Shown here: in pieces, positions 2,271 through 38,418 of the stretch | How positions within the stretch are numbered: the stretch's first letter is position 1 | How the letters are laid out: each line of letters opens with the position of its first letter | Source of the DNA: Lachnospiraceae bacterium | GTDB taxonomy: Bacteria > Bacillota > Clostridia > Lachnospirales > Lachnospiraceae | Length of the DNA: 38,418 nucleotides | Assembly: GCA_014804795.1 (NCBI GenBank) | Contig: JAAUZC010000028.1 | Coordinates: 1 to 38,418 of the forward strand | Direction: 5' to 3' | Made by a program: the position numbers and the translations under genes | The notes under the pieces: generated by a model | What the model saw: only the letters and a program-made list of their open reading frames with translations | What the model was told of the DNA's origin: nothing | Databases searched by the model: none

Positions 2271-2855
2271 TTATTCAATCGGAGTTACTACAGCTGTATC
2301 AAAGAACTTAGCATACAGATACAGAGGTCCGCACCAGGGAACATCTTCCTCAACGGGAGCCATTCCTGCAGGGATTGTGATCACATAGTGATTTCCATCA
2401 TAATCGTATGTAATTACTGCATCAACATTAGCATCATTCAGTTTCTGCATAACATCGCTGGAGAAAGTGGAAATGCCGAGTTCCACGCCGTCAATTTCAA
2501 CCACGCCAGCCTCATCGCCTGCTGCAACAGCTGCCTCAACTGCCTGATCAATCTTCAGGCTGATCGCTTTTTCAACTGCTTCCAGAGCTGCAAATGAATT
2601 AGTGGAACAAGGGGAACAAGGAGTACAAGAACCGCCACCAACTGATGTGCTCGGTGTCTGAGTTACTGTTGAGCCCGGTGTCTGAGACGGAGTTGTTGTC
2701 TCAGTCCCATCTCCTGGTGTGCTCGGTGTCTCAACCTGTCCTGAAAGAGTCGCAATACCATCATTATCGCCTGCTGCTGCAAAGGACATCATTCCCATGC
2801 TGACTAATAACGCTACTGCTAAAGCCAATGCACCTAATTTTTTGATTTTTTTCAT
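2271..2855 (-). CDS. Small secreted Thr/Pro-rich protein
   Basis: This is a 194-residue exported protein with no firm family. The start at 2855 is chosen because AAAGGAAAGGA lies upstream at good spacing and because it begins a clean signal peptide (KKIKKLGALALAVALLVSMG, cleavage probably after SFA). Next comes a low-complexity Thr/Ser/Pro segment built from repeats of TPSTPGDG- and TPSQTPGS-like units. A Gly/Cys segment (SCTPCSPCST) follows, then a C-terminal domain of about 100 residues ending in an ITYDYDGNHYVITIPAG strand pattern. I recall similar YxVTIPAG-type ends on other Lachnospiraceae surface proteins, but I know of no function. There is no LPXTG motif or membrane anchor, so it is probably released or held non-covalently. 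It is monocistronic, with its own strong promoter and terminator. Confidence 0.7.
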   Translation of the reverse strand: MKKIKKLGALALAVALLVSMGMMSFAAAGDNDGIATLSGQVETPSTPGDGTETTTPSQTPGSTVTQTPSTSVGGGSCTPCSPCSTNSFAALEAVEKAISLKIDQAVEAAVAAGDEAGVVEIDGVELGISTFSSDVMQKLNDANVDAVITYDYDGNHYVITIPAGMAPVEEDVPWCGPLYLYAKFFDTAVVTPIE

Positions 2856-2894
2856 AATAGTAATCCTTTCCTTTATATTTTGAAATTTTTTATC

Positions 2895-2923
2895 ATTATA
2901 GAAAATCCCCCCCAATATGTCAA
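2895..2923 (-). promoter_or_regulatory. Consensus promoter with a G7 tract in the spacer
   Basis: The -35 TTGACA is at 2923-2918 and the -10 TATAAT at 2900-2895. The spacer is exactly 17 bp and contains seven consecutive G on the minus strand (2907-2913). Transcription would start near 2888 and serve the small secreted protein. Both hexamers are perfect, and slippage of the G tract would change the spacer length. Confidence 0.75.
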
Positions 2924-2941
2924 GCGGATTTTTTCTAAATT

Positions 2942-4591
2942 CTATCTCTTCAAGCGGAATTTCCTCGTCTTCTCCTCCAGCAGATGCACCTGTTCAAACA
3001 ACTCATTGCTGACTGCCGCAGACTCCTCACTGTTTGCAGAATTATTCTGCACCACGGAGTTTATCTGTCCGATACCGACAGAGACCTGAGATAACGCTTC
3101 AGCTTCCTGATGAATTGCTTCCGTAATGGAACTGATCGCCTCATCGGAACGCATCACAAGTTCGTGTGCCTGTCTCAAAGATTGGGATACTTCCTCTACG
3201 ATCCGGCTGCCCCGGTCAGTCGCCTGCACAGAGTTTTCAATCAGCTGTCTGGTTGCTTTCACGGCTTCATCGGACTTTGATGCCAGAACCTGTACTTCAC
3301 TTGCAACAACGGCAAATCCCTTACCGAGTTCTCCGACGCGGGCGGCCTCCACTGCCGCATTTAACGCCAGAAGGTTGGTCTGGGAAGCGATATCCTCAAT
3401 CGTATTGATGATCTTACTGATCTGGCTGGAAGCCTCCGTAATATCTCCCATAGCAGCTACCATCTTCTCCATCTGTCTGCTGCTGATCGTAACCTGTTCA
3501 CTGGTAAGCTGGGCACTGCGGCTGGCATCCGCGATCGCTTTCACATTCCTGGCAGCGCTTCCGGATAATTCATCCATTGTGGCATACAGTTCCTGTACCG
3601 CGCTTGCCTGCTCCGTAACCCCCTGTGCCAGAGACTGGGAGCCGCCGGAAAGCTGCCCCGCATAAGAAGCCACTTGCTGCTCCGCCTGAACGATCCCCCG
3701 TATTGTATCCGAAACAGAACCCGTAAAACGTCCCAGTGCCTCTTCAATGGACTGAAAATCACCGATATACCGCGCAGAAACAGAAACATCAAAATTGCCC
3801 TGTGCCAGTTCGCTCATAATACGGTCTATATCCGCCACATACTCCTGAATACGGCTCATGGCCTCCTCCAGTGTCTGTGCCAGTTCGCCCAGCTCGTTTT
3901 CAGAATGATAGTCCAGATGCAGAGAAAGATTGCCATCATGCAAAGGACGGGTCTTCTCGGTAATACCGATCAACGGCCCGACTACGTGCCGTTTTACATA
4001 CATCACCAGACTGATCAGGCCGCCAAGCGCCAATACCAGACATACACAGGTGGAAATATGCATGAAAATAATCGTTTTGCTTATTCTGGCAGCATATTCG
4101 TCAGTGAGCGTTTCACTCCGCTCCACCACTTCCCCTAAAAGCCCCACCAATGTACTCAAATTCGGGAGAATCGTCTCCTGATAATACTGTCCTGCCTGCT
4201 CTTTGTCATTCCCGTATATTTCTAACACAGTGCCCGCAGAGGCATGAAGTTCTTTATGCAACGGCTCAATCCGGTCGCGCAATTTCTTAATCTCCGCATC
4301 TTCCAATTCCATATCTCCGTACACCCACTGTCCCAGTACACAGGCCGTATGATCCAGGCTGCCTGTAAATTCCGTGTCGGCATACAGTGCATTACTCAGG
4401 TTGGCCGCCCATTTATAATGAGCCGTTTCAGCGCTTTGGATCCGATTTAATGTGGCGGAAGCACTGACACTATTCTTCTGCAGTGATTCGATACGCAATA
4501 TATTGAATGTTGTTATGCAGCTGAAAAGAACGATCATAATAACAGCATAGGCAACACGGATGTTGATCGATCTTTTAATACTGTTTCCCAT
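2942..4591 (-). CDS. Methyl-accepting chemotaxis protein with CZB-like sensor
   Basis: This is a 549-residue transmembrane chemoreceptor that would signal to CheA through CheW. TM1 is at about 13-33 and TM2 at about 173-198. Between them is a sensor with the pattern of a chemoreceptor zinc-binding (CZB) domain: H58 in AHYKW, then [13 protein letters not shown] with C84, then LHKELH with H112 and H116. A HAMP domain follows at about 196-250. The signalling hairpin contains [20 protein letters not shown] and [15 protein letters not shown] near 403-437. The C-terminus lacks a CheR-binding pentapeptide. The start has a strong AAGGAGGA site. The gene is alone, with its own promoter, and no chemotaxis or flagellar operon is in view. 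Confidence 0.93.
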
Positions 4592-4623
4592 AAATTCTGA
4601 AATCCTCCTTTTTATTTTTCTTC

Positions 4624-4652
4624 ATTATATAATAAAGTTACTATAATTGCAA
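4624..4652 (-). promoter_or_regulatory. Sigma-A promoter of the chemoreceptor gene
   Basis: TTGCAA at 4652-4647 and TATAAT at 4629-4624 are separated by 17 bp. They lie about 30 bases upstream of the chemoreceptor start codon. Confidence 0.7.
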
Positions 4653-4690
4653 TCAATCTCAAAAACACAGAAAATTTTAGATGATTTTTA

Positions 4691-4718
4691 TTGATTTTAT
4701 CCTTTAATTATGTATAAT
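4691..4718 (+). promoter_or_regulatory. Promoter of pckA
   Basis: TTGATT at 4691-4696 and TATAAT at 4713-4718 are separated by 16 bp. The leader of about 85 nt contains an A/T-rich stem (GGAAAAA with TTTTTCTCC at about 4750-4771). Confidence 0.6.
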
Positions 4719-4810
4719 ATGATATTGGTATTCAATATGTCCATTATGTGGAAAAATTTCATTTTTCTCCATAAACAGACAAATATTAAAGAAAAGAGGT
4801 TAAATGTAAA

Positions 4811-6415
4811 ATGGCAGAAATCAATTTAAGCAAGTATGGCATTACCGGAACCACAGAAATTGTTTACAATCCTTCTTTTGAAATGTTGTTTGAGGAAGAG
4901 ACAAAATCTGATCTGACCGGTTATGAAAAGGGACAGGTGAGTGAACTCGGCGCTGTAAACGTAATGACCGGTATCTATACAGGCCGTTCCCCCAAAGATA
5001 AGTTTATCGTAATGGATGAAAATTCAAAAGATACCGTATGGTGGACTTCCGACGAATACAAGAACGATAACCATCCGGCTTCAGAAGAAACCTGGAATGC
5101 CGTAAAGGAACTGGCTCTCAATGAGCTTTCCAACAAGAGACTCTTTGTTGTAGATGCGTTCTGCGGTGCAAACCATGACACACGTATGGCTATCCGTTTC
5201 ATCATGGAAGTGGCCTGGCAGGCTCATTTCGTAAAAAATATGTTCATCATCCCTTCCGACGAAGAGCTTGAGAACTTTGAGCCCGATTTCGTTGTTTACA
5301 ACGCTTCCAAGGCAAAAGTAGAAAATTATAAAGAGTTAGGTCTGAATTCCGAAACTGCTGTTGTGTTCAATATCACAAGCCGCGAGCAGGTTATCTTAAA
5401 TACATGGTACGGCGGAGAAATGAAGAAAGGTATGTTCTCCATGATGAATTACTATCTGCCGTTAAAGGGCATCGCTTCCATGCACTGCTCTGCCAACACA
5501 GATATGAACGGTGAGAATACCGCTATCTTCTTCGGTCTTTCCGGTACAGGTAAAACTACTCTGTCCACAGATCCCAAGCGTCTCCTGATCGGTGATGACG
5601 AGCACGGCTGGGATGACAACGGCGTATTCAACTTTGAAGGCGGCTGCTATGCAAAAGTTATTGATCTCGACAAAGAATCCGAGCCCGATATTTACAATGC
5701 AATTAAGCGCAACGCACTTCTTGAGAACGTAACTCTGGATGAAGAGGGCAAGATCGATTTCAAAGATAAGAGCGTAACGGAAAACACACGTGTATCTTAT
5801 CCGATCGACCACATTGAAAATATTGTACGTCCTGTATCCACAGCACCGGCAGCTAAGAACGTGATTTTCCTGTCCGCAGATGCTTTCGGCGTACTTCCTC
5901 CTGTATCTATTCTGACACCGGAACAGACACAGTACTACTTCCTGTCCGGCTTCACAGCAAAACTTGCCGGTACAGAGCGCGGCATCACAGAGCCTACACC
6001 TACTTTCTCCGCTTGCTTCGGTCAGGCATTCTTAGAGCTTCACCCGACAAAATACGGCGAAGAGCTTGTTAAGAAGATGGAACAGAACGGTGCGAAAGCA
6101 TATCTGGTAAATACAGGCTGGAACGGCACAGGCAAACGTATCACCATCAAAGATACCCGTGGTATCATCGATGCGATCCTGAACGGCGACATTCTGAACG
6201 CTCCTACAAAGAAGATTCCTTACTTCAACTTTGAAGTACCGACAGAGCTTCCGGGTGTAGATACAAATATTCTTGATCCTCGTGATACTTATGCAGATGC
6301 TTCCGAATGGGAGACAAAAGCAAAAGATCTGGCACAGAGATTTGTAAAGAACTTTGCGAAATATGAAGGCAATGATGCAGGTAAAGCTTTAGTTGCAGCG
6401 GGTCCTCAGTTATAA
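4811..6415 (+). CDS. pckA: Phosphoenolpyruvate carboxykinase (ATP)
   Basis: This cytoplasmic enzyme interconverts oxaloacetate + ATP and phosphoenolpyruvate + CO2 + ADP. In fermentative Clostridia it often runs in the carboxylating direction and conserves ATP. The 534-residue length is typical. The substrate-binding motif [10 protein letters not shown] is near residue 56. The P-loop GLSGTGKTT is at 242-250, the metal-binding LIGDDEHGW near 259-267, and [12 protein letters not shown] follows later in the mobile-lid half. The start is preceded by AGAGG at slightly long spacing. The gene is monocistronic, with its own promoter and a shared terminator downstream. All key motifs are intact. Confidence 0.97.
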
Positions 6416-12030: not shown

Positions 12031-13431
12031 ATGGATACATATAATACAGAATCTAATGAGAAACAGACAAAAAATATCAAAGGCATCCGAATACAGTCAA
12101 TAAGTTATTTTATGATAGTCATATCCTGCGTTTTTTACATCTTTATTCTGTGTATCATCATTCAGATGTCCAACCGTTATGATACCCTGATCCAGAATAT
12201 AAATGCCTACACCGCATGCAATCAGGATGCGAGTACTCTGAAACAGGCCTCGGACTATCTCACGGAACAGGTCCGCCTTTATGTCATAACTACAGATTCC
12301 AAATATATGGATGCCTATATTGATGAACTTTATGTTTCCATGCGCAGAGAACATGCTCTGGAGGATTTACAGAATAGTAATAACAGTATCGAATCTCTGT
12401 CTTACCTGCAGCAGGCGCTTGATAAATCCAATGAACTCGCGGCAACAGAGCTCTATGCCATACGCCTTGTTGGAGAAGCCAAAGGCTATTCTTCCGATGC
12501 ATTTCCTGATTGTGTAAAGAATATAACATTATCAGATGCGGATATTGCTCTCTCTCCTGATGCCAAACTGCAAAAGGCTCAAACTCTGGTATTTGATTCA
12601 GAATATCTGCATATGAAAGAGCTGATCAATTCAGATATTTCTTCCTGCTTGGATTCCATTATATCCGACACTTTAAATGCTCAGGAATTAAGTGTTGACG
12701 CTATGCACCAGTCCCTTTCCAAGCAGCGCATTTATATCAGTATTTTATTTTTTCTCAATATTATCACTTTTATTATGATAATTATATTAATTGTCAAGCC
12801 TCTGAAAATATATGTAAATTGTATGAAAGAGGAAAAAATGCTATCTATTATGGGGGCATATGAATTTAAATATCTTGCCCTTACTTACAATGATATCTAT
12901 AATCTTAAAAAGGTCAATGAATCTGTACTGCAGCAGAAAGCAGAGCAGGATCCCTTAACCGGTCTCGCCAATCGTGCGGCCTTTGAAAAATTGCAGCATG
13001 TTTTAAAAAGCGATGTTTCCTTAGTCCTGTTTTTAATGGATGTAGACAACTTCAAATCTGTCAATGATACTTACGGACATAAAGTTGGTGATCAGGTACT
13101 GCAAAAAGTCGCTGAAGCACTACAAAAAAGTTTTCGTTCTGAGGACTTCGTCATGAGAATAGGCGGAGATGAATTTTCTGCTGTTGTCACACACATTACG
13201 CCGGAGCAAAGTTCTGCTCTCGAACAAAAAATAACTTCTATTAATGAATTTCTTTCCAACTCCGATGACGGCTTACCTGTTGTGACACTCAGTATCGGTG
13301 CCGCCTTTTCTGACCAGGGCTTTACAGACGACCTTTATGTTCTGGCTGACAAAGCACTTTATTATGTAAAAGAGCATGGGCGTAACGGATATGCAGTCTA
13401 TCAGGATATTTGTGACAGTTTATCAAAATGA
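12031..13431 (+). CDS. Membrane diguanylate cyclase (GGDEF) with extracellular helical sensor
   Basis: This 466-residue protein would make cyclic di-GMP from two GTP. TM1 is at about 26-46 and TM2 at about 236-256. The roughly 190 residues between them are predicted helical and extracellular, without a domain I can name. The GGDEF domain starts at DPLTGLANR (about 307). The catalytic motif GGDEF is intact at 378-382, and an inhibitory I-site RSED at 369-372 sits exactly five residues before it. Product inhibition is therefore likely. No EAL or HD-GYP partner is nearby. The start is preceded by GTGGGGG. The neighbours face away (MATE) or converge (LysM protein), so it is probably transcribed alone. 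Confidence 0.92.
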   Translation: MDTYNTESNEKQTKNIKGIRIQSISYFMIVISCVFYIFILCIIIQMSNRYDTLIQNINAYTACNQDASTLKQASDYLTEQVRLYVITTDSKYMDAYIDELYVSMRREHALEDLQNSNNSIESLSYLQQALDKSNELAATELYAIRLVGEAKGYSSDAFPDCVKNITLSDADIALSPDAKLQKAQTLVFDSEYLHMKELINSDISSCLDSIISDTLNAQELSVDAMHQSLSKQRIYISILFFLNIITFIMIIILIVKPLKIYVNCMKEEKMLSIMGAYEFKYLALTYNDIYNLKKVNESVLQQKAEQDPLTGLANRAAFEKLQHVLKSDVSLVLFLMDVDNFKSVNDTYGHKVGDQVLQKVAEALQKSFRSEDFVMRIGGDEFSAVVTHITPEQSSALEQKITSINEFLSNSDDGLPVVTLSIGAAFSDQGFTDDLYVLADKALYYVKEHGRNGYAVYQDICDSLSK

Positions 13432-32471: not shown

Positions 32472-33222
32472 GGTTTTCTCCTAAGCCGTCTGATTTATCA
32501 CCGGTATTCACAGCGTTGTCATCCTCTGCAGAGGGCACTGTATCTTTCTCCGGCGATACCTGCTCACTATCAGTATACGGGATTAACTCTTCAAAATCAA
32601 TTCCATTTATAAACTCTTCACTGCTTAAAGAATCCACCACATTCTGATAATCTACGCTGCCGATTTTTAATCCGGCAAACCGCATCAAAAGCACGATCAT
32701 AAATAAAAGTGCAGAAAGAAAGCTGCGTGCCACAAAAGATGCCCTGTTTTTTTTCTGCATCTTCTGCCACGCGGCTTCCGCTTCTGCCTCTTCATTCTCC
32801 GCTGCCTGCAGCATGGATGTCCTCCCATAGCCGCTTTTCAGCGTATCGTTATATCTCTTCTTTTTTCCTCTGACTGCAGATCTCCCGTAAACCAACATCT
32901 CCCGTTTGTCCATCTGCAGCCTGTTGTAATCTTCTTCCTGTCTGAGCATATGGGACAGTTCTAACTTCTGTTCCACCGAAAGCCCCTGTCTCTCCTGTCC
33001 CCTGCCTGAGCTTTTTGCGTATAAATCCTCCATCTTTCCCCTCCATTCCAGTTCTGCACTCGCCCTCCCAGCACCTGATACCGGCAGAGAAAATCTTGTC
33101 TGCTTCGCATCCAATATTTTCTCTGAGGCACTGTCCGGGCTCCTGCCGTTTCCAGTTCTGGCTTTGTCCTTTTTAACAGGATATGAGAAAGCATCTTTTT
33201 TTAGAAGCATAACAGTATTCAA
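32464..33222 (-). CDS. Uncharacterised single-pass membrane protein
   Basis: I do not recognise this protein. The likely start is a TTG at 33222 that overlaps the blaR1 stop (TTGA), with GAAGGA five bases upstream. An ATG four codons later has no site. The 252 residues begin with a long charged, low-complexity half (many K, R, E, S and G). One membrane helix follows at about 170-190 (SFLSALLFMIVLLMRFAGL), then an acidic tail of about 60 residues (SLSSEEFINGIDFEELIPY and onward). The charge distribution places the basic half inside and the acidic tail outside. Its stop overlaps the next gene's start. It may be a regulator or accessory protein of the BlaR1-like sensor, but that is inferred only from position. 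Confidence 0.75.
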   Translation of the reverse strand: MNTVMLLKKDAFSYPVKKDKARTGNGRSPDSASEKILDAKQTRFSLPVSGAGRASAELEWRGKMEDLYAKSSGRGQERQGLSVEQKLELSHMLRQEEDYNRLQMDKREMLVYGRSAVRGKKKRYNDTLKSGYGRTSMLQAAENEEAEAEAAWQKMQKKNRASFVARSFLSALLFMIVLLMRFAGLKIGSVDYQNVVDSLSSEEFINGIDFEELIPYTDSEQVSPEKDTVPSAEDDNAVNTGDKSDGLGENLE

Positions 33223-35042
33223 AGCTGTCCTTCCCGCCAGGCTTTCCACACTTCCAGTGCACCGTAATATTTGCCGGACAGAGATTTATCCTGCGTAAAG
33301 GGAGCCACGTCTCTGGGACTGTAGCGCAACAGAAAATATTCCATATCATGCAGTATTTCATGAGCCTGCATCACATAACTCACTTCATGGGTATCCTTCG
33401 CCTGCTGCAGGGTACTGCAGAATTTTTCAACATCTGACCGAAAAGTTTCGTTTTCCGCGGAAGCAGTGAGCTCTTTTATTCTCTGTATTACGGTTTCTGC
33501 TCCGTACCGGCTTTCTTCATAGTAAGGCTCTCCGTATTTTTCCCTCAACTCCTCCAGGGATACTGTTCCATACTCCGGATATTTTTCCTGCAGATAATTC
33601 AACTCCTCTTCCTCTACTCTCACAAAAGAATCCGGATCCTCTTCCAGTCTGAAGCCGGCCTGCACCACTCCCGTCCGGTCGATAAAATTCCATGCCACAT
33701 TGTTCTGATCGGAAAGCTTTCTCTCCCAGTTATCATACAGCAGACGCGCTTCCAGCCAGTTATGATAATCCTTTACATAAGTAGTGAGCCTGTCAATTTC
33801 CTCTTCATCCATACCTGTAAGTGCTGTTTTTCTGACCTCCTCCACTTCCTCTTCAAGGGGGTAAAAAGTTTCCTCCGACTCTTCATCCTGTGAAGCAGAT
33901 TGTGTTATTATCACTTCCCCCTGCTCCGTCTCATTTCCCGTCAATATTTTCCGGAAAAGGCTATCCTGTTCTGTCCTTCCGGTAAACAGATAAGCGAATG
34001 CCGTCAGACCAAGAAGCAATGTGGACATCGCAACCGCGACGGCTCTTTTATCCGGCATTGCGGCCAGCTTTCTGATACGCCTCTCCATATGCTTCTTTGT
34101 ATCTGCCATTTCCGTATTACAGAATCCTGCATGCCTCAGAACATCCGACAATTCTCCGAAATGCCCCTCTTTCGTTGTCATCTTAAGAAGTGTCCTGCCA
34201 TACTCATAGCGGTTTTCTTCCCCCAGTTCCCGCACCGTACCGGCATCACAAAACAGTTCCGCATCCTGTTTGCTGGCAAGCGCCGCTGCCCAGGCAAGGG
34301 GATTATACCAATGTATGATCAGGCAGAGCAGCCGCAGAAAGCTCCAGAGTTGATCCCCATGCCGGTAATGCACATTCTCATGACAAAGCATCGTTTTCAG
34401 CTCCCTGTTATTTTTTTCGCTGCCGGATCCGCTCTCTGTATTTTCCCTCCAGATCTGCAGCGGAATATAGACCGCCGGCGTCCTTAATCCCGCCAGACAG
34501 GGCGTTGTCACAAATTTTGAAACATAAACCGGGACTTTGGAAAACAATTCTCTCTTTTCCAGTTCCTCATCTACTTCTTCCCTGTCACTGTAAATACGGA
34601 TGCGGAAAAATAAATTTGACAACAGGAAAACCCCGCCCGTCACCGCCATACCGATGATCCATACCACATAAAAATACGTAAAATTACCGAAATACGATCT
34701 TTCAGCACCATATTCCCTTTCATCCGTGGCATCAGTGTAATCTGCTGTCATTCCTGCATCTGTCGGTATAACTTTTATATATTCTGCATCCTCCGACGCG
34801 CTATCCTCCGTATATATTCCGTCTTCTTCAGTTTCCGTTTCCTTCGTCCATTCGATCACTTTATCCGCTAATGCCGGCAGCGAATAGCTGCTGTTCCAGA
34901 AGCTTACGGGAATTGAAAGCCGTACAACCACAAGAAGCCAGAGCCCGTACTGCAGACCGGGCACCAGCTTTTCTCCGAACAGTTTTCGTATCAGCAGTAT
35001 TACAATGATCAATGCGGAAGATGTCAAAATCCAGTTACTCAT
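33219..35042 (-). CDS. BlaR1/MecR1-family M56 metallopeptidase sensor
   Basis: This 607-residue membrane zinc peptidase of the BlaR1 family would sense a signal and cleave the BlaI-type repressor encoded just upstream. Helices are visible at about 5-20, 30-47 and 125-145, with another near 335-354. The zinc site is HENVH at 221-225 (LCHENVHYRHGD), with a third ligand in KQDAELFCDAG near 258-267. The C-terminal extracellular part (355-607) has none of the penicillin-binding motifs (SxxK, KTG) that I would expect of a beta-lactam sensor. The signal is therefore unknown. The start overlaps blaI by eight bases. Confidence 0.9.
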   Translation of the reverse strand: MSNWILTSSALIIVILLIRKLFGEKLVPGLQYGLWLLVVVRLSIPVSFWNSSYSLPALADKVIEWTKETETEEDGIYTEDSASEDAEYIKVIPTDAGMTADYTDATDEREYGAERSYFGNFTYFYVVWIIGMAVTGGVFLLSNLFFRIRIYSDREEVDEELEKRELFSKVPVYVSKFVTTPCLAGLRTPAVYIPLQIWRENTESGSGSEKNNRELKTMLCHENVHYRHGDQLWSFLRLLCLIIHWYNPLAWAAALASKQDAELFCDAGTVRELGEENRYEYGRTLLKMTTKEGHFGELSDVLRHAGFCNTEMADTKKHMERRIRKLAAMPDKRAVAVAMSTLLLGLTAFAYLFTGRTEQDSLFRKILTGNETEQGEVIITQSASQDEESEETFYPLEEEVEEVRKTALTGMDEEEIDRLTTYVKDYHNWLEARLLYDNWERKLSDQNNVAWNFIDRTGVVQAGFRLEEDPDSFVRVEEEELNYLQEKYPEYGTVSLEELREKYGEPYYEESRYGAETVIQRIKELTASAENETFRSDVEKFCSTLQQAKDTHEVSYVMQAHEILHDMEYFLLRYSPRDVAPFTQDKSLSGKYYGALEVWKAWREGQL

Positions 35043-35418
35043 GCTCCTCCTCCGCTTTTTTCAGTATTTCATATAAACTGTTTATTTCCTCTCTGGAAAG
35101 CTTCTGTCTTTCCGTAAAAGTACTGACCAACAGAGAAAGGCTCCCGTGATATACCCTGTTCAGGAAATGATCCGTCTCCTGACATACGGCTTCCTGCCTG
35201 TCGATCAGCGGACAGTATGTTTTGATACCTTTTTCATCTTCCGCACATTCCAGATACCCTTTCTTTGTCATCCTTGAGAGCATTGTCAGCGTGGTACTCC
35301 TGCTGTATCCCGCAATCTCCTTCACATCCGCTACGATTTCACTTCCAATCTTCGGTGCCTTTTTCCAGAGGCTTTCCATAATATTCCACTCTGCCTGTGT
35401 CAATATGATCTGCTGCAT
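35035..35418 (-). CDS. BlaI/MecI/CopY family transcriptional repressor
   Basis: This 127-residue winged-helix repressor represses the operon that it begins. The DNA-binding half shows LTQAEWNIMESLWKKAPKIG and then GYSRSTTLTMLSRMTKKGYL. The C-terminal dimerisation helix is the site where BlaR1-type proteases cut (between helices, near the middle of the protein). The start at 35418 follows GTGGGGA. The frame extends to 35448 without a better site. Two TACAATGTA operators flank the promoter upstream. Confidence 0.95.
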   Translation of the reverse strand: MQQIILTQAEWNIMESLWKKAPKIGSEIVADVKEIAGYSRSTTLTMLSRMTKKGYLECAEDEKGIKTYCPLIDRQEAVCQETDHFLNRVYHGSLSLLVSTFTERQKLSREEINSLYEILKKAEEEHE

Positions 35419-35496
35419 GTTAATCCCCACTCCTTCCACGACCTGCAAACTTTTTCACACAACCCGCCGCACAGCCTTCAAATCTTTTATAACGCA

Positions 35497-35575: not shown

Positions 35576-35884
35576 TCAACAATCCCACCCGCATTTCTTC
35601 ATATCCACATGATCATTATCCTTAAATTTCACACCCTCCTCCAGGAGCAGCCCTCTTTGCTCATAAAAGAACGGCGCTAATCGTCCCGCATGATTCACAA
35701 CACGGTGGCAGGGATATTTCCCGTAGTACTCCGCCATACTGAGGACTTTTCCCACAAGCCTTGCGTTCTTATCCCTGCCGATCAGCTTCGCAATCTGTCC
35801 GTAGGAAGCAACTTTTCCCGCCGGTATCTCTTCTACCACCGATAATATTTCATAAATCAAATCTTCCGTAAGGATTCCTGACAT
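35576..35884 (-). CDS. MGMT-family DNA alkyltransferase-like protein
   Basis: This 102-residue protein is the C-terminal, DNA-binding domain of O6-alkylguanine-DNA alkyltransferase without the N-terminal half. IPAGKVASYGQIAKLIG and the active-site PCHRV are present, with the acceptor C59 retained. Alkyltransferase-like (ATL) proteins have tryptophan there. It may therefore still accept an alkyl group or flag lesions for repair. The start at 35884 follows AAAGGGGGA; an upstream ATG at 35968 lacks this. It lies 80 bases after the DUF2812 gene in the same direction. Confidence 0.88.
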   Translation of the reverse strand: MSGILTEDLIYEILSVVEEIPAGKVASYGQIAKLIGRDKNARLVGKVLSMAEYYGKYPCHRVVNHAGRLAPFFYEQRGLLLEEGVKFKDNDHVDMKKCGWDC

Positions 35885-35964
35885 AGATATCCCCCTTTCG
35901 TTCCGTCCAAGGCCTAAAAACCGCAAAATTTCAGCCTTTCCCGCTCCGTTGTTATTCACAAAAA

Positions 35965-36522
35965 TCATCTGTTTGCTTTCTTTTTAAAGGCATAATATTT
36001 CAGTGCAAAACGGATAAGCAAAACGGCATACACTGCAAACAAAACAATCCACATCACCAAAATACCACCCCTGCTCGGCTTGCCGGATACAAAATCCGTA
36101 AATATCATGATTAAATTGGGCATAACAGTAATGAAAAATATGATAAGAAGCCATAGTATTCTCCCTTTGAACACACGCTGCAGCATATTCAGACGCGACT
36201 CGTCATCACAGAAAATCTCCTCATCTCCCTCCATTTGGGCTGCCGGCTTCCGAAAATAGTGGTAGTCCATAAAATCAAACAGATACTCCCAGCCGCAGTC
36301 CTGAAACATTTTAAGATACTCTTCCCTCTGGAATTTACCTTCCTGATAATAATCCAGCTGATAGACCATATCCTCAGGACTGCAGGCCTTAAAATGATAA
36401 AAACAGGGCAGACCGACATGGATGATCTCCCACCCCGTCTGATGCATCTGCCTTAAATATTCCTGCTCCGCTTCATGGTCTGCCACACTAAAAAAACGAA
36501 TTTCTGTCTTTGTATTTTTCAT
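35965..36522 (-). CDS. DUF2812 domain-containing membrane protein
   Basis: This 185-residue protein is a common partner of PadR regulators. The N-terminal DUF2812 part has the family pattern: EQEYLRQMHQTGWEIIHVGL, the phrase DMVYQLDYY, and GWEYLFDFMDYHYFRK. Two membrane helices follow at about 121-142 and 153-175, with a basic end. PadR-DUF2812 pairs occur in many Firmicutes; by analogy with other PadR-linked membrane proteins it may sense envelope stress, but its role is unproven. The ATG overlaps the padR stop (ATGA). Confidence 0.9.
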   Translation of the reverse strand: MKNTKTEIRFFSVADHEAEQEYLRQMHQTGWEIIHVGLPCFYHFKACSPEDMVYQLDYYQEGKFQREEYLKMFQDCGWEYLFDFMDYHYFRKPAAQMEGDEEIFCDDESRLNMLQRVFKGRILWLLIIFFITVMPNLIMIFTDFVSGKPSRGGILVMWIVLFAVYAVLLIRFALKYYAFKKKANR

Positions 36523-36836
36523 AATGTCATCTCCTTTGCGTTTTGATAAAGCCGCTCAATCCTTTTCAGCTCCAGATTCAAAATCTCAAGTCCGAGTTCC
36601 GTGATATGATAAATCTTACGTTTTTCCTCTTCACGGATAAACATGATCAGCCCGTCTTTCTCCATTTTGGAAAGACTGCCGTACATCGTTCCCGGGCTCA
36701 GAACGATCTCATGATTCGTCAGTTCTTTTACCGTTTGAACAATTCCATATCCATGATTCGGTTTGCGCAGACACAGAAGTATGTAAAATCCTGTCTCTGT
36801 CATAGGTACATAAACCTTTTTAATGTGGGCATCCAT
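36519..36836 (-). CDS. PadR family transcriptional regulator
   Basis: This 105-residue winged-helix regulator has the PadR pattern: TETGFYILLCLRKPNHGYGI, then LSPGTMYGSLSKMEKDGLI and a wing with KRKIYHITELG. A short C-terminal helix allows dimerisation. The start follows GGAGGTGG. It leads a two-gene operon with the DUF2812 protein, and its own promoter carries a palindrome in the spacer that is the likely binding site. Confidence 0.95.
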   Translation of the reverse strand: MDAHIKKVYVPMTETGFYILLCLRKPNHGYGIVQTVKELTNHEIVLSPGTMYGSLSKMEKDGLIMFIREEEKRKIYHITELGLEILNLELKRIERLYQNAKEMTL

Positions 36837-36865: not shown

Positions 36866-36914
36866 TATATCGCAGTACAATATATAATATATCGCACTGC
36901 GATGGTTTTGTCAA
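36866..36914 (-). promoter_or_regulatory. padR promoter with operator in the spacer
   Basis: TTGACA (36914-36909), 17 bp, TATATT (36891-36886). The spacer contains the palindrome ATCGCACTGCGAT (36891-36903). The 9-mer TATATCGCA occurs twice, at 36866 and 36888, 22 bp apart, which places two sites on one face of the helix. Confidence 0.65.
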
Positions 36915-37069
36915 GTTATATTACGATTTTTCAAAATATTACAGGAAGTTATAAAAAGCGCTCTGTTGTGCGTCTGCTAAACAATCCGTTGCTTTTCAGA
37001 TATGCCAATGCCTGATAAAATAAACGAAAACAAATACCTAAAAATAATAGATAAGGAGCTGAAAACAGT

Positions 37070-37810
37070 ATGAAAGAAAACATTGGAGAATTAATCTGCC
37101 AGTATAGGCAGAACAGGAAAATGACGCAGGAAGAATTTGCCTTCCGGCTGGGAGTAACACCGCAAGCGGTAAGCAAGTGGGAGCGTGGAAATGGGCTGCC
37201 GGATATATCGCTTGTAAAGGGCATCTGCCAAATACTGGATATCAGTGCCAACTCACTGCTTGGAATTGCTGCCAGCGAAGTGGTTGAAAATGATAATGCG
37301 GCTATGGAGCAGGAAATTAAAAACAATATGTTTGCTGAGCCGTTTTTGCTGGAGTTGGGGGAAGGACTGATTGATTATGTGAAAGCTGGTCTGGAAACGG
37401 GTTATATAAATCAACAGAGAAAAAGACTGGCTGAGAGCACAGGCATTCTGATGCCGGTTTTGCGTATAAAAGATAATTTAGAACTTGAAAAAAACACTTA
37501 CCGGATACTTTCCTACGATAAAGTGCTATATGAGGAAAAACTGAATGAAGGGGATGAAGATGCCTACAGGAAAATGATTGACAACGTTTCGGCTAAATGT
37601 CAGGAAAATTATGCCGACATTTTAAATAAGCAGATTGTGAAAATCATGATCGATAATATTAAAGAATTTTTTCCCGGTGCGGTAGTTGGACTAATACCGG
37701 AGAAAATCGGTTATCTTCAAGTGCAGCGCAAATTACAGGAAATGCTGCGGCAGGGGAAATCCATCCGGGATATGCTGCATATTCTGGAAGAATTAGAGGA
37801 GGCGCTGTAG
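37070..37810 (+). CDS. XRE helix-turn-helix protein fused to an FlhA C-terminal-like domain
   Basis: This 246-residue protein joins two recognisable parts. Residues 6-60 are an XRE/Cro helix-turn-helix (MTQEEFAFRLGVTPQAVSKW). Residues 88-244 follow the cytoplasmic domain of FlhA/FHIPEP, the flagellar type III export gate. They show ESTGILMPVLRIKDNLELEK with the R-I-x-D-N motif and NTYRI. They end in GLIPEKIGYLQVQRKLQEML and KSIRDMLHILEEL, which align with the FlhA motif of QxVLQNLLxExVxIRDxxTILExL type. The FlhA membrane half is absent. No flagellar gene is in the window. The start has AAGGAG at long spacing. It could be a DNA-binding protein that uses the FlhA-like fold for ligand or protein binding; this is inferred. 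Confidence 0.85.
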   Translation: MKENIGELICQYRQNRKMTQEEFAFRLGVTPQAVSKWERGNGLPDISLVKGICQILDISANSLLGIAASEVVENDNAAMEQEIKNNMFAEPFLLELGEGLIDYVKAGLETGYINQQRKRLAESTGILMPVLRIKDNLELEKNTYRILSYDKVLYEEKLNEGDEDAYRKMIDNVSAKCQENYADILNKQIVKIMIDNIKEFFPGAVVGLIPEKIGYLQVQRKLQEMLRQGKSIRDMLHILEELEEAL

Positions 37811-37822
37811 GGTGCCTCTTTT
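37799..37822 (+). terminator. Terminator overlapping the XRE gene stop
   Basis: GAGGCGC pairs with GGTGCCTC-type bases (one G-T) around a short loop and is followed by TTTT. The stem includes the stop codon. Confidence 0.5.
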
Positions 37823-37869
37823 ACCTTCATTGTTTACAAACATATGTAAACCCCCATCACGATTCTTCC

Positions 37870-38117
37870 CTATGAAGCAATATCACTGATCAGACGCGCG
37901 TAGATCACATAGGAAATCACCACATTGACAGCGTCCGCTAACTCAGGAACATAAAGGGTGTGGCAAAGCAGCGCGATTGGAGAAACCTCGTCCCAAACCG
38001 CACTGTGTCCGCCACTTTATAGATGAGCGTTATGAGCCGGCTTACAATGGTCGGAATCGCCATCTTCGCCAGTTCGCGGGGAACCGGTCTGGTCTCAAAA
38101 ATCTCTTTTGTCTCTTC
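37870..38117 (-). pseudogene. MATE transporter remnant (N-terminal fragment, frameshifted)
   Basis: On the minus strand from 38117 the frame reads EETKEIFETRPVPRELAKMA then IPTIVSRLITLIYKVADT. This is the start of a MATE protein, ending near 38006. It has no start codon. The frame then shifts, and only an unassigned open stretch (PIALLCHTLYVPELADAVNV and on) runs to a stop at 37870. It is a decayed gene. Nothing else in 37823-38115 looks coding. An 11-bp inverted repeat (TGTTTGTAAAC) flanks the segment at 37832 and 38137. Confidence 0.6.
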
Positions 38118-38418
38118 AGAGAAATGTTGTCAAGTGTGTTTGTAAACTTTTCTCATATCTGCCGTCTTCTTTTATCTGCATGATCCAGTTCATAAAAGTA
38201 TCAAAAGTCAGTTTTACATTCCCGCAGTTACAATGGTTGCAGGCATCTTCCTTATCCGTGAATAAACGGAAGGTAAGGGAACGGACATTTTTCAGGGCGT
38301 TAATCTCTTCTCCGACCATCGTATAGGGAATGAAATGGTCTTTGTTTGCCCCCACAATCAGAACATCTTGCGTGATTTTATCCGCAATGTTCATCATCTG
38401 AAACTGGTTCATTTTCTA
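38116..38418 (-). pseudogene. Alpha/beta hydrolase C-terminal fragment
   Basis: The 98 codons read DVLIVGANKDHFIPYTMVGE, then NVRSLTFRLFTDKEDACNHC. This is the C-terminal region of an alpha/beta hydrolase, with the catalytic Asp region (GANKDHFI) and a histidine region (NHCNCGN). An in-frame TAG lies at 38418-38416, two codons before the first ATG at 38412. No ribosome-binding site or fold start is present, so the gene seems broken by a stop or truncated. The N-terminal part would lie beyond the window. The last residues look non-native because the end runs into the MATE remnant. Confidence 0.6.

What the first reader, a model, noticed from the sequence alone, without database searches (positions are those of the whole stretch)
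37070..37810. DNA-binding domain fused to a flagellar export (FlhA C-terminal) fold
The sequence shows an XRE helix-turn-helix at 6-60 joined to a region (88-244) carrying the FlhA cytoplasmic signatures RIKDNLELEKNTYRI and QRKLQEMLRQGKSIRDM, without the membrane part. FlhA-C normally docks export substrates and chaperones. An orphan regulator using that fold could read flagellar or chaperone status, or could be a new ligand-binding transcription factor. No flagellar genes are nearby. I know of no characterised member.
Basis: partly seen in the sequence, partly recalled or inferred. Interest (0 to 1): 0.75.

Follow-up and report, generated by a model that had tools for sequence, protein, structure and literature searches.

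The report
Self-regulating regulator built from flagellar FlhA
In gut Lachnospiraceae, part of the flagellar export-gate protein FlhA has been cut loose, joined to a DNA-binding domain and placed under a promoter with a conserved control site, giving what looks like a self-regulated gene switch tied to flagella whose job has not been tested.

Summary
The 246-aa ORF at 37070-37810 joins an XRE helix-turn-helix (Pfam 7e-14) to a real FlhA-derived domain (PF00771 1.7e-18; profile-profile 99.8%, E 1e-28). It is not a whole FlhA-C: linker end, D1 and most of D3 are kept; D2 (with most of the chaperone-docking dimple), D4 and the membrane part are absent.

It is a selected family: 22 full-length relatives in named records, carriers in 16 of 397 family genomes (16 genera), dN/dS 0.09-0.23 in the FlhA part. 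Two relatives still hold D2 or part of it. Fourteen of 16 carriers encode true FlhA (209 of 397 overall; p=0.003); of the others, one has FlhB ending at a contig edge and one only a broken copy.

New here: a promoter element, AAC-N5-GTTG beside the -35 box, 17-bp spacer, extended -10, anchored in 33 of 36 upstream regions. In carrier genomes all 8 matches with at most one mismatch lie at the gene; regions around flhA hold no more sites than shuffled sequence. Best reading: an autoregulated protein whose D1-D3 part self-assembles or binds a flagellar export partner. No structure model was obtained; no binding was tested.

The parts
37070..37810 (+). CDS, 246 aa: XRE helix-turn-helix fused to an FlhA-derived D1-D3 domain
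   Evidence: ORF; Pfam, NCBIfam and PDB matches; 22 full-length relatives in named records
37100..37249 (+). helix-turn-helix, residues 11-60
   Evidence: HTH_3 E 7e-14; recognition region nearly invariant in 23 aligned members
37286..37333 (+). connector, residues 73-88; its second half aligns with the C-terminal end of the FlhA linker
   Evidence: alignment of the family with 21 FlhA proteins
37334..37513 (+). FlhA D1, first part, residues 89-148; GxxLI in place of the GYXLI motif; RIKDN
   Evidence: alignment to FlhA-C 6ai2 chain 37-99; 15 of 27 shared majority positions lie here
37514..37612 (+). short bridge, residues 149-181, where FlhA has D2; about 46 FlhA columns have no counterpart here
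   Evidence: profile-profile alignment; A4 profile against PDB FlhA
37613..37807 (+). FlhA D3 (most of it), residues 182-246; D4 absent
   Evidence: alignment to FlhA-C 3mix chain 177-248; the family profile ends at residue 577 of the 692-aa FlhA chain 36hw
36980..36991 (+). putative operator, imperfect inverted repeat AACAATCCGTTG (family form AAC-N5-GTTG)
   Evidence: anchor in 33 of 36 upstream regions; this site scores 25.8 bits, family median 24.0; one match in G000, here
36993..36998 (+). predicted -35 box TTTTCA (family consensus TTTACA)
   Evidence: fixed spacing in 31 aligned promoters
37013..37021 (+). predicted extended -10, TG-A-TAAAAT, 17-bp spacer from the -35 box
   Evidence: positions 25-33 of the promoter alignment; T and A of the first two -10 positions each in 30 of 31

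Best explanation
A single-gene, autoregulated DNA-binding protein of flagellated Lachnospiraceae. Shown here by sequence: an XRE HTH is joined to an FlhA-derived module (linker end, D1, most of D3) that has lost D2, D4 and the membrane part, is under purifying selection, and co-occurs with true FlhA; its own promoter carries a conserved inverted repeat abutting the -35 box. Inferred: the protein binds that repeat as a dimer and controls its own synthesis, more likely as a repressor because the promoter is near consensus. Inferred further: the D1-D3 module is a protein-contact module that either self-assembles or pairs with the linker or ring of the resident FlhA, so that occupancy by the flagellar export apparatus changes DNA binding or the free amount of the protein.
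For: HTH and FlhA homology. Both halves constrained: dN/dS 0-0.08 for the HTH (7 of 9 pairs) and 0.09-0.23 for the FlhA part (8 of 9 pairs); the other pairs had saturated dS, and several counted pairs have dS above 1, so the ratios are rough. Promoter anchor in 33 of 36 upstream regions; letters outside the anchor are also conserved (AAC complete in 26 of 31; T and A of the -10 each in 30 of 31). In 16 carrier genomes the full pattern with up to 2 mismatches has 21 sites, 10 at the gene, and all 8 with 0-1 mismatch are at the gene; in 58 fusion-free FlhA-positive genomes 24 sites against 19 for the reversed pattern, 4 with one mismatch, none exact. FlhA in 14 of 16 carriers against 209 of 397, hypergeometric p=0.0034; of the two exceptions G279 has FlhB running to a contig end and G182 has only a broken copy. 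Among 23 genomes behind named loci 22 have FlhA; the one without has an interrupted copy. D1 and D3 are the domains that the FlhA linker of the neighbouring subunit binds.
Against: No binding, oligomerisation or expression was measured. No conserved gene neighbourhood. No excess of operator-like sites in about 273 kb around flhA of four carriers (19 against 15 in one shuffle each, best 14.3 bits against a median of 24.0 at own sites). The fixed pattern misses the gene's own promoter in 6 of 16 carriers. The fusion is in only 14 of 209 FlhA-positive family genomes, and damaged copies occur in genomes that keep FlhA (G356, G053, G558, L035/G1116), so it is dispensable for flagella. Long branches in the tree mean heavy divergence from FlhA, so contact with FlhA may be lost. 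No structure model could be made.
Confidence: 0.5

Rival explanations
1. An ordinary XRE regulator that borrowed FlhA D1-D3 only as a homo-oligomerisation or small-molecule module; its signal and targets have nothing to do with flagella.
For: Orphan position; no operators near flhA; strong divergence from FlhA; most of the chaperone dimple gone.
Against: Carriers are FlhA-positive more often than the family at large, in 16 different genera. The carriers in which no FlhA was found, apart from G279 with its contig break, are G182 and G1114, and both hold broken copies.
Confidence: 0.27
2. A soluble FlhA mimic that acts mainly after translation, for example by occupying the FlhA linker or ring and damping export; the HTH serves only for autorepression, as in many antitoxins.
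For: In carriers the gene itself is the only place with a close match to the promoter pattern; the retained domains are the linker-accepting ones.
Against: No partner shown; nothing in the sequence separates this from a regulator with weak extra targets.
Confidence: 0.18
3. A non-functional fusion remnant or assembly artefact.
For: Some copies are clearly broken or partial (G182, G356, L025, L035, G558), and G116 keeps only the promoter.
Against: Full length in 22 named records and in 13 of 16 family-sample carriers, with constrained evolution and a conserved promoter.
Confidence: 0.02

Closest known systems
FlhA (PF00771 FHIPEP, TIGR01398), cytoplasmic domain
   Same: D1 and most of D3 recognisable, 27 majority residues shared; GxxLI in place of the GYXLI switch
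   Different: No membrane part, no D2 dimple, no D4, HTH in front; TIGR01398 score 72.3 against a cut-off of 772.1
XRE / HTH_3 family regulators (PF01381)
   Same: Typical Cro/CI-type HTH; putative operator abutting its own promoter
   Different: The second domain is FlhA-derived; no such architecture in the listings of the paper searches made; InterPro architectures not searched
FlgS-FlgR checkpoint of Campylobacter (PMC7064773, passages read)
   Same: Couples the state of the flagellar export core and ring to transcription
   Different: A two-component kinase that contacts FliF and FliG; here a one-component regulator would carry a piece of the export gate itself. Likeness in idea only
SctV relatives of injectisomes (LcrD, InvA, MxiA)
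   Same: Same superfamily, weakly matched
   Different: Scores clearly below flagellar FlhA; origin is flagellar

Membership tests
XRE-type (HTH_3) DNA-binding proteins | HTH_3 domain above the curated cut-off | tested here: met
   52.1 bits against 23
XRE-type (HTH_3) DNA-binding proteins | Binds DNA at an operator | not testable with these tools
   Only a conserved inverted repeat at its own promoter was found
FlhA (flagellar export gate) | N-terminal membrane domain | tested here: not met
   Matches begin at profile positions 315 of 657 and 327 of 678; an HTH precedes them
FlhA (flagellar export gate) | D1 and D3 of the cytoplasmic part | tested here: met
   by sequence only; D3 not quite to its end in the window's protein
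FlhA (flagellar export gate) | D2 with the chaperone-docking dimple | tested here: not met
   About 46 columns missing; retained in relative L168 and, shortened, in L068
FlhA (flagellar export gate) | D4 | tested here: not met
   Profile of the family ends at residue 577 of FlhA 36hw, 692 aa
FlhA (flagellar export gate) | Curated equivalog score | tested here: not met
   72.3 bits against 772.1
FlhA-C fold | Predicted or solved structure superposes on FlhA-C | not tested
Autoregulated regulators | Conserved site at its own promoter, specific to the gene | tested here: met
   sequence evidence only
Flagellar-cluster regulators | Operators at flagellar gene clusters | tested here: not met
   19 hits against 15 shuffled in regions around flhA of four carriers; other flagellar loci and weak sites not tested

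The most novel reading that the evidence does not exclude
A soluble, DNA-binding decoy of the export-gate ring: the D1-D3 module accepts the linker of the resident FlhA, or joins its ring, so a one-component regulator physically reports the switching state of the flagellar gate, a checkpoint without a kinase.
Probability: 0.2. Interest if true: 0.85.

Novelty: new variant of a known kind. Interest (0 to 1): 0.6.

Why it matters
It is a case of a core secretion-machine domain re-used as part of a DNA-binding protein, with forms that still hold D2 beside forms that have lost it. If it contacts FlhA it would give flagellated gut Lachnospiraceae a direct link between export-gate state and gene control, and a simple reporter for FlhA ring and linker exchange, which is hard to study in cells. 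It also separates FlhA D1-D3 from chaperone docking in a natural protein.

Tried and rejected
Chance similarity: rejected. Recent duplicate of the resident FlhA: rejected; 29 fusion rows lie on one side of a branch (98/99) from 48 FlhA rows (the script's filter had skipped 11 further FlhA rows). The tree carries long-branch warnings. L168 (D2 kept) lies next to the FlhA side, but so does L080, which lacks most of D2, and L068 lies deepest among the rest, so the tree supports 'D2 lost later' only in part.

Phage or plasmid gene: 2 phage and 9 plasmid records matched the FlhA-like part; the 7 rows shown have 24.5-26.9% identity, one annotated flhA, the others with no annotation shown. I take them for FlhA; I did not open them.

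Neighbourhood: one search was cut, so I saw the neighbours of 29 of 36 loci in full there; the rest were printed. L017 and L083 in that set are one contig. Only 24 of 595 pairs of 35 loci share anything within 3 kb, the strongest being close relatives (L004-L006, L012/L014, L018/L021, L022-L024). The PadR-DUF2812 pair beside the fusion in the window also stands beside it in L020, and in no other of 41 loci. A tblastn of 626 neighbour ORFs against regions around flhA of four genomes gave matches that look like general families (response regulators, dehydrogenases and the like); one near L073 is a sigma-70-type factor. Those regions were taken as flagellar because they surround flhA; I did not annotate them.

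Flagellar regulon by the operator: none seen. The 11 non-self sites in 16 carriers all have 2 mismatches (0.7 a genome, against 0.25 for the reversed pattern there and 0.4 in fusion-free genomes), and I saw no shared downstream gene. Five of 24 fusion-free sites were opened; G116 is an orphan promoter.

Other short frames that matched: G1069, G1087, G873, G890, G987 and G501 are pieces of FlhA without an HTH; G365 and G318 have FlhA-level PF00771 E-values. The order-wide list was cut, so weaker D2-type fusions may be missed; a second order-wide search with divergent and D2-type members (295 genomes, E up to 1e-32) showed G616, the own genome and G657 as the only fusions.

Full report
The gene. 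ORF 37070-37810 (+), 246 aa, has a ribosome-binding site and stands divergent from a PadR-type gene. Residues 11-60 are HTH_3 (7e-14). Residues 72-160 and about 182-244 match FHIPEP (1.7e-18) and FlhA (2.6e-20), flagellar rather than virulence type (1e-7). The C-terminal part alone finds solved FlhA-C chains.

Which part of FlhA. Profile-profile comparison of 23 family members with 21 FlhA proteins aligns 185 columns, residues 369-599 of the own genome's 710-aa FlhA frame, with about 46 columns missing in the middle. Against a 692-aa FlhA chain the family profile spans 359-577. PMC8166844 (Introduction read) gives the FlhA linker as 328-361 and FlhA-C as four domains; PMC10965912 (passages read) places the chaperone dimple (Leu-438, Ile-440, Pro-442, Asp-456, Phe-459, Leu-461, Val-482, Val-487, Thr-490) at the D1-D2 interface. 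The missing stretch holds most of the dimple. The exact limits that I use for D1 to D4 (D2 about 435-483, D3 about 504-583) are recalled, not from a call. So this protein keeps linker end, D1 and most of D3, and lacks D2, D4 and the membrane part. The GYXLI switch appears as GxxLI. Twenty-seven positions share the same majority residue (60% or more) in both families.

The family. One scan of genome contigs gave 35 loci: 22 hold a full-length HTH-FlhA protein, one an interrupted copy (L025), one a remnant (L035), and 11 matched only in or near the HTH. Of the 22 record titles 21 name Lachnospiraceae or Roseburia, Agathobacter or Acetatifactor (placed in that family from general knowledge); one says Clostridia. 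In 397 family genomes 16 have a fusion-size match, in 16 genera. Of these 13 are full length, G053 has an internal deletion, G356 is a remnant behind an intact promoter and G182 is broken. In an order-wide sample of 392, six carriers were seen (list cut): five of the own family (G000, G657, G104, G693 and a 106-aa piece without HTH in G558) and G616 of another family. In 391 class genomes only the own genome is a carrier at E 1e-11. G616's protein (L168; genome 5% contaminated, so its placement is unsure) matches FHIPEP in one unbroken stretch 323-530, so D2 is kept, and G181's (L068) keeps a shortened D2-like segment. This suggests fusion first and loss of D2 later; the tree supports that only in part. 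dN/dS is 0.09-0.23 in the FlhA part and 0-0.08 in the HTH over the pairs with unsaturated dS.

Tie to flagella. In the 397 family genomes 211 match PF00771; two of those (G279, G182) only through the fusion, leaving 209 with FlhA. Carriers with FlhA: 14 of 16, hypergeometric p 0.0034. G279 has FlhB whose frame runs to the contig end; G182, 76% complete, has neither FlhA nor FlhB. Outside that sample G657, G558 and G616 have FlhA and G693 has FlhB. Among 23 genomes behind named loci 22 have FlhA, in two of them in pieces; the one without is the genome of the interrupted L025. Against a strict need: G356, G053, G558 and the L035 genome keep FlhA with damaged copies, and most FlhA-positive genomes lack the fusion. 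All eight other genomes of the own genus have FlhA and no fusion detected by PF00771. Genomes are related, so the p-value is a guide.

The promoter. Of 36 upstream regions (one of them of the interrupted L025) 33 hold (A/G)TTG(T/C)T(T/A); L010, L013 and L077 do not. Aligned on it, 31 promoters, near-duplicates L014 and L021 dropped, show AAC eight to six bases upstream (each letter in 28-29, complete in 26), TTTACA as -35, 17 bp, then TGnTATAAT. The anchor letters are conserved by selection of the hits; the others are not. Operator scores run from -2.4 (L080) to 28.7, the window's being 25.8. The repeat's centre is near -43 if the start site lies seven bases past the -10, a place used by activators such as lambda CI at PRM (recalled) and also by repressors that block the -35 box. 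The near-consensus promoter favours repression; this is inference. The full pattern with up to 2 mismatches has 21 sites in the 16 carriers, 10 of them at the gene itself (own promoter missed in 6 genomes); reversed control 4. All 8 sites with 0-1 mismatch are at the gene, one of them at the G356 remnant. In 58 of the FlhA-positive genomes without fusion: 24 sites, reversed control 19, four with 1 mismatch and none exact. Scanning about 273 kb around flhA in four carriers with the operator matrix gave 19 hits against 15 in shuffled sequence.

Reading. The best-supported picture is a self-controlled protein whose FlhA-derived half is the working part. D1 and D3 are what the linker of the next FlhA subunit binds in the ring, and the fusion keeps the linker end as well. 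Self-assembly or pairing with FlhA is therefore the natural guess, while chaperone docking is unlikely. None of this contact is shown. No characterised member appeared in the paper listings (in one search only 12 of 576 papers were listed); subscription papers and InterPro architectures were not searched.

Limits. No structure model could be obtained. Genome completeness values are the tool's.

Noticed in passing
window 36519-36836, 35965-36522, 35576-35968 (-): PadR regulator, DUF2812 protein and an MGMT-type DNA-binding domain protein in overlapping order, divergent from the fusion; PadR (81% identity) and DUF2812 also sit beside the fusion in L020. ATCGCACTGCGAT, a perfect 6-bp inverted repeat at 36891-36903, may be the PadR operator.
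   Followed up: partly
window 33219-35448 (-): M56 peptidase (BlaR1 type) next to a penicillinase-repressor-type regulator.
   Followed up: no
window 2942-4591 (-): Methyl-accepting chemotaxis protein with a zinc-binding CZB domain; the clearest motility-related gene among the 22 other window proteins scanned, 32 kb away. A GGDEF protein is at 12031-13431.
   Followed up: no
L187 (G116:C15) 2181-2260: One-mismatch copy of the fusion promoter with a ribosome site, a 7-codon ORF and a hairpin (by eye) but no fusion gene; a relative in the same genus (G693) has the gene. Looks like a scar of its loss.
   Followed up: partly
L193 (G1099:C70) 2631-5093: Second fusion copy in the genome of L009: it lacks the start of the HTH and begins just behind a serine-recombinase gene (Resolvase and Recombinase domains); the insertion may have cut into it.
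   Followed up: partly
G000:C15:72011, G279:C64:13994, G693:C75:81110, G616:C4:4538: Each of the four genomes with FlhB also has a short separate frame (98-137 aa) matching only the FlhB C-terminal domain.
   Followed up: no
window 37811-38418: The contig ends 600 bases behind the fusion; the last ORF (38116-38412, -) has no Pfam match at 0.001 and lies at the contig end.
   Followed up: no
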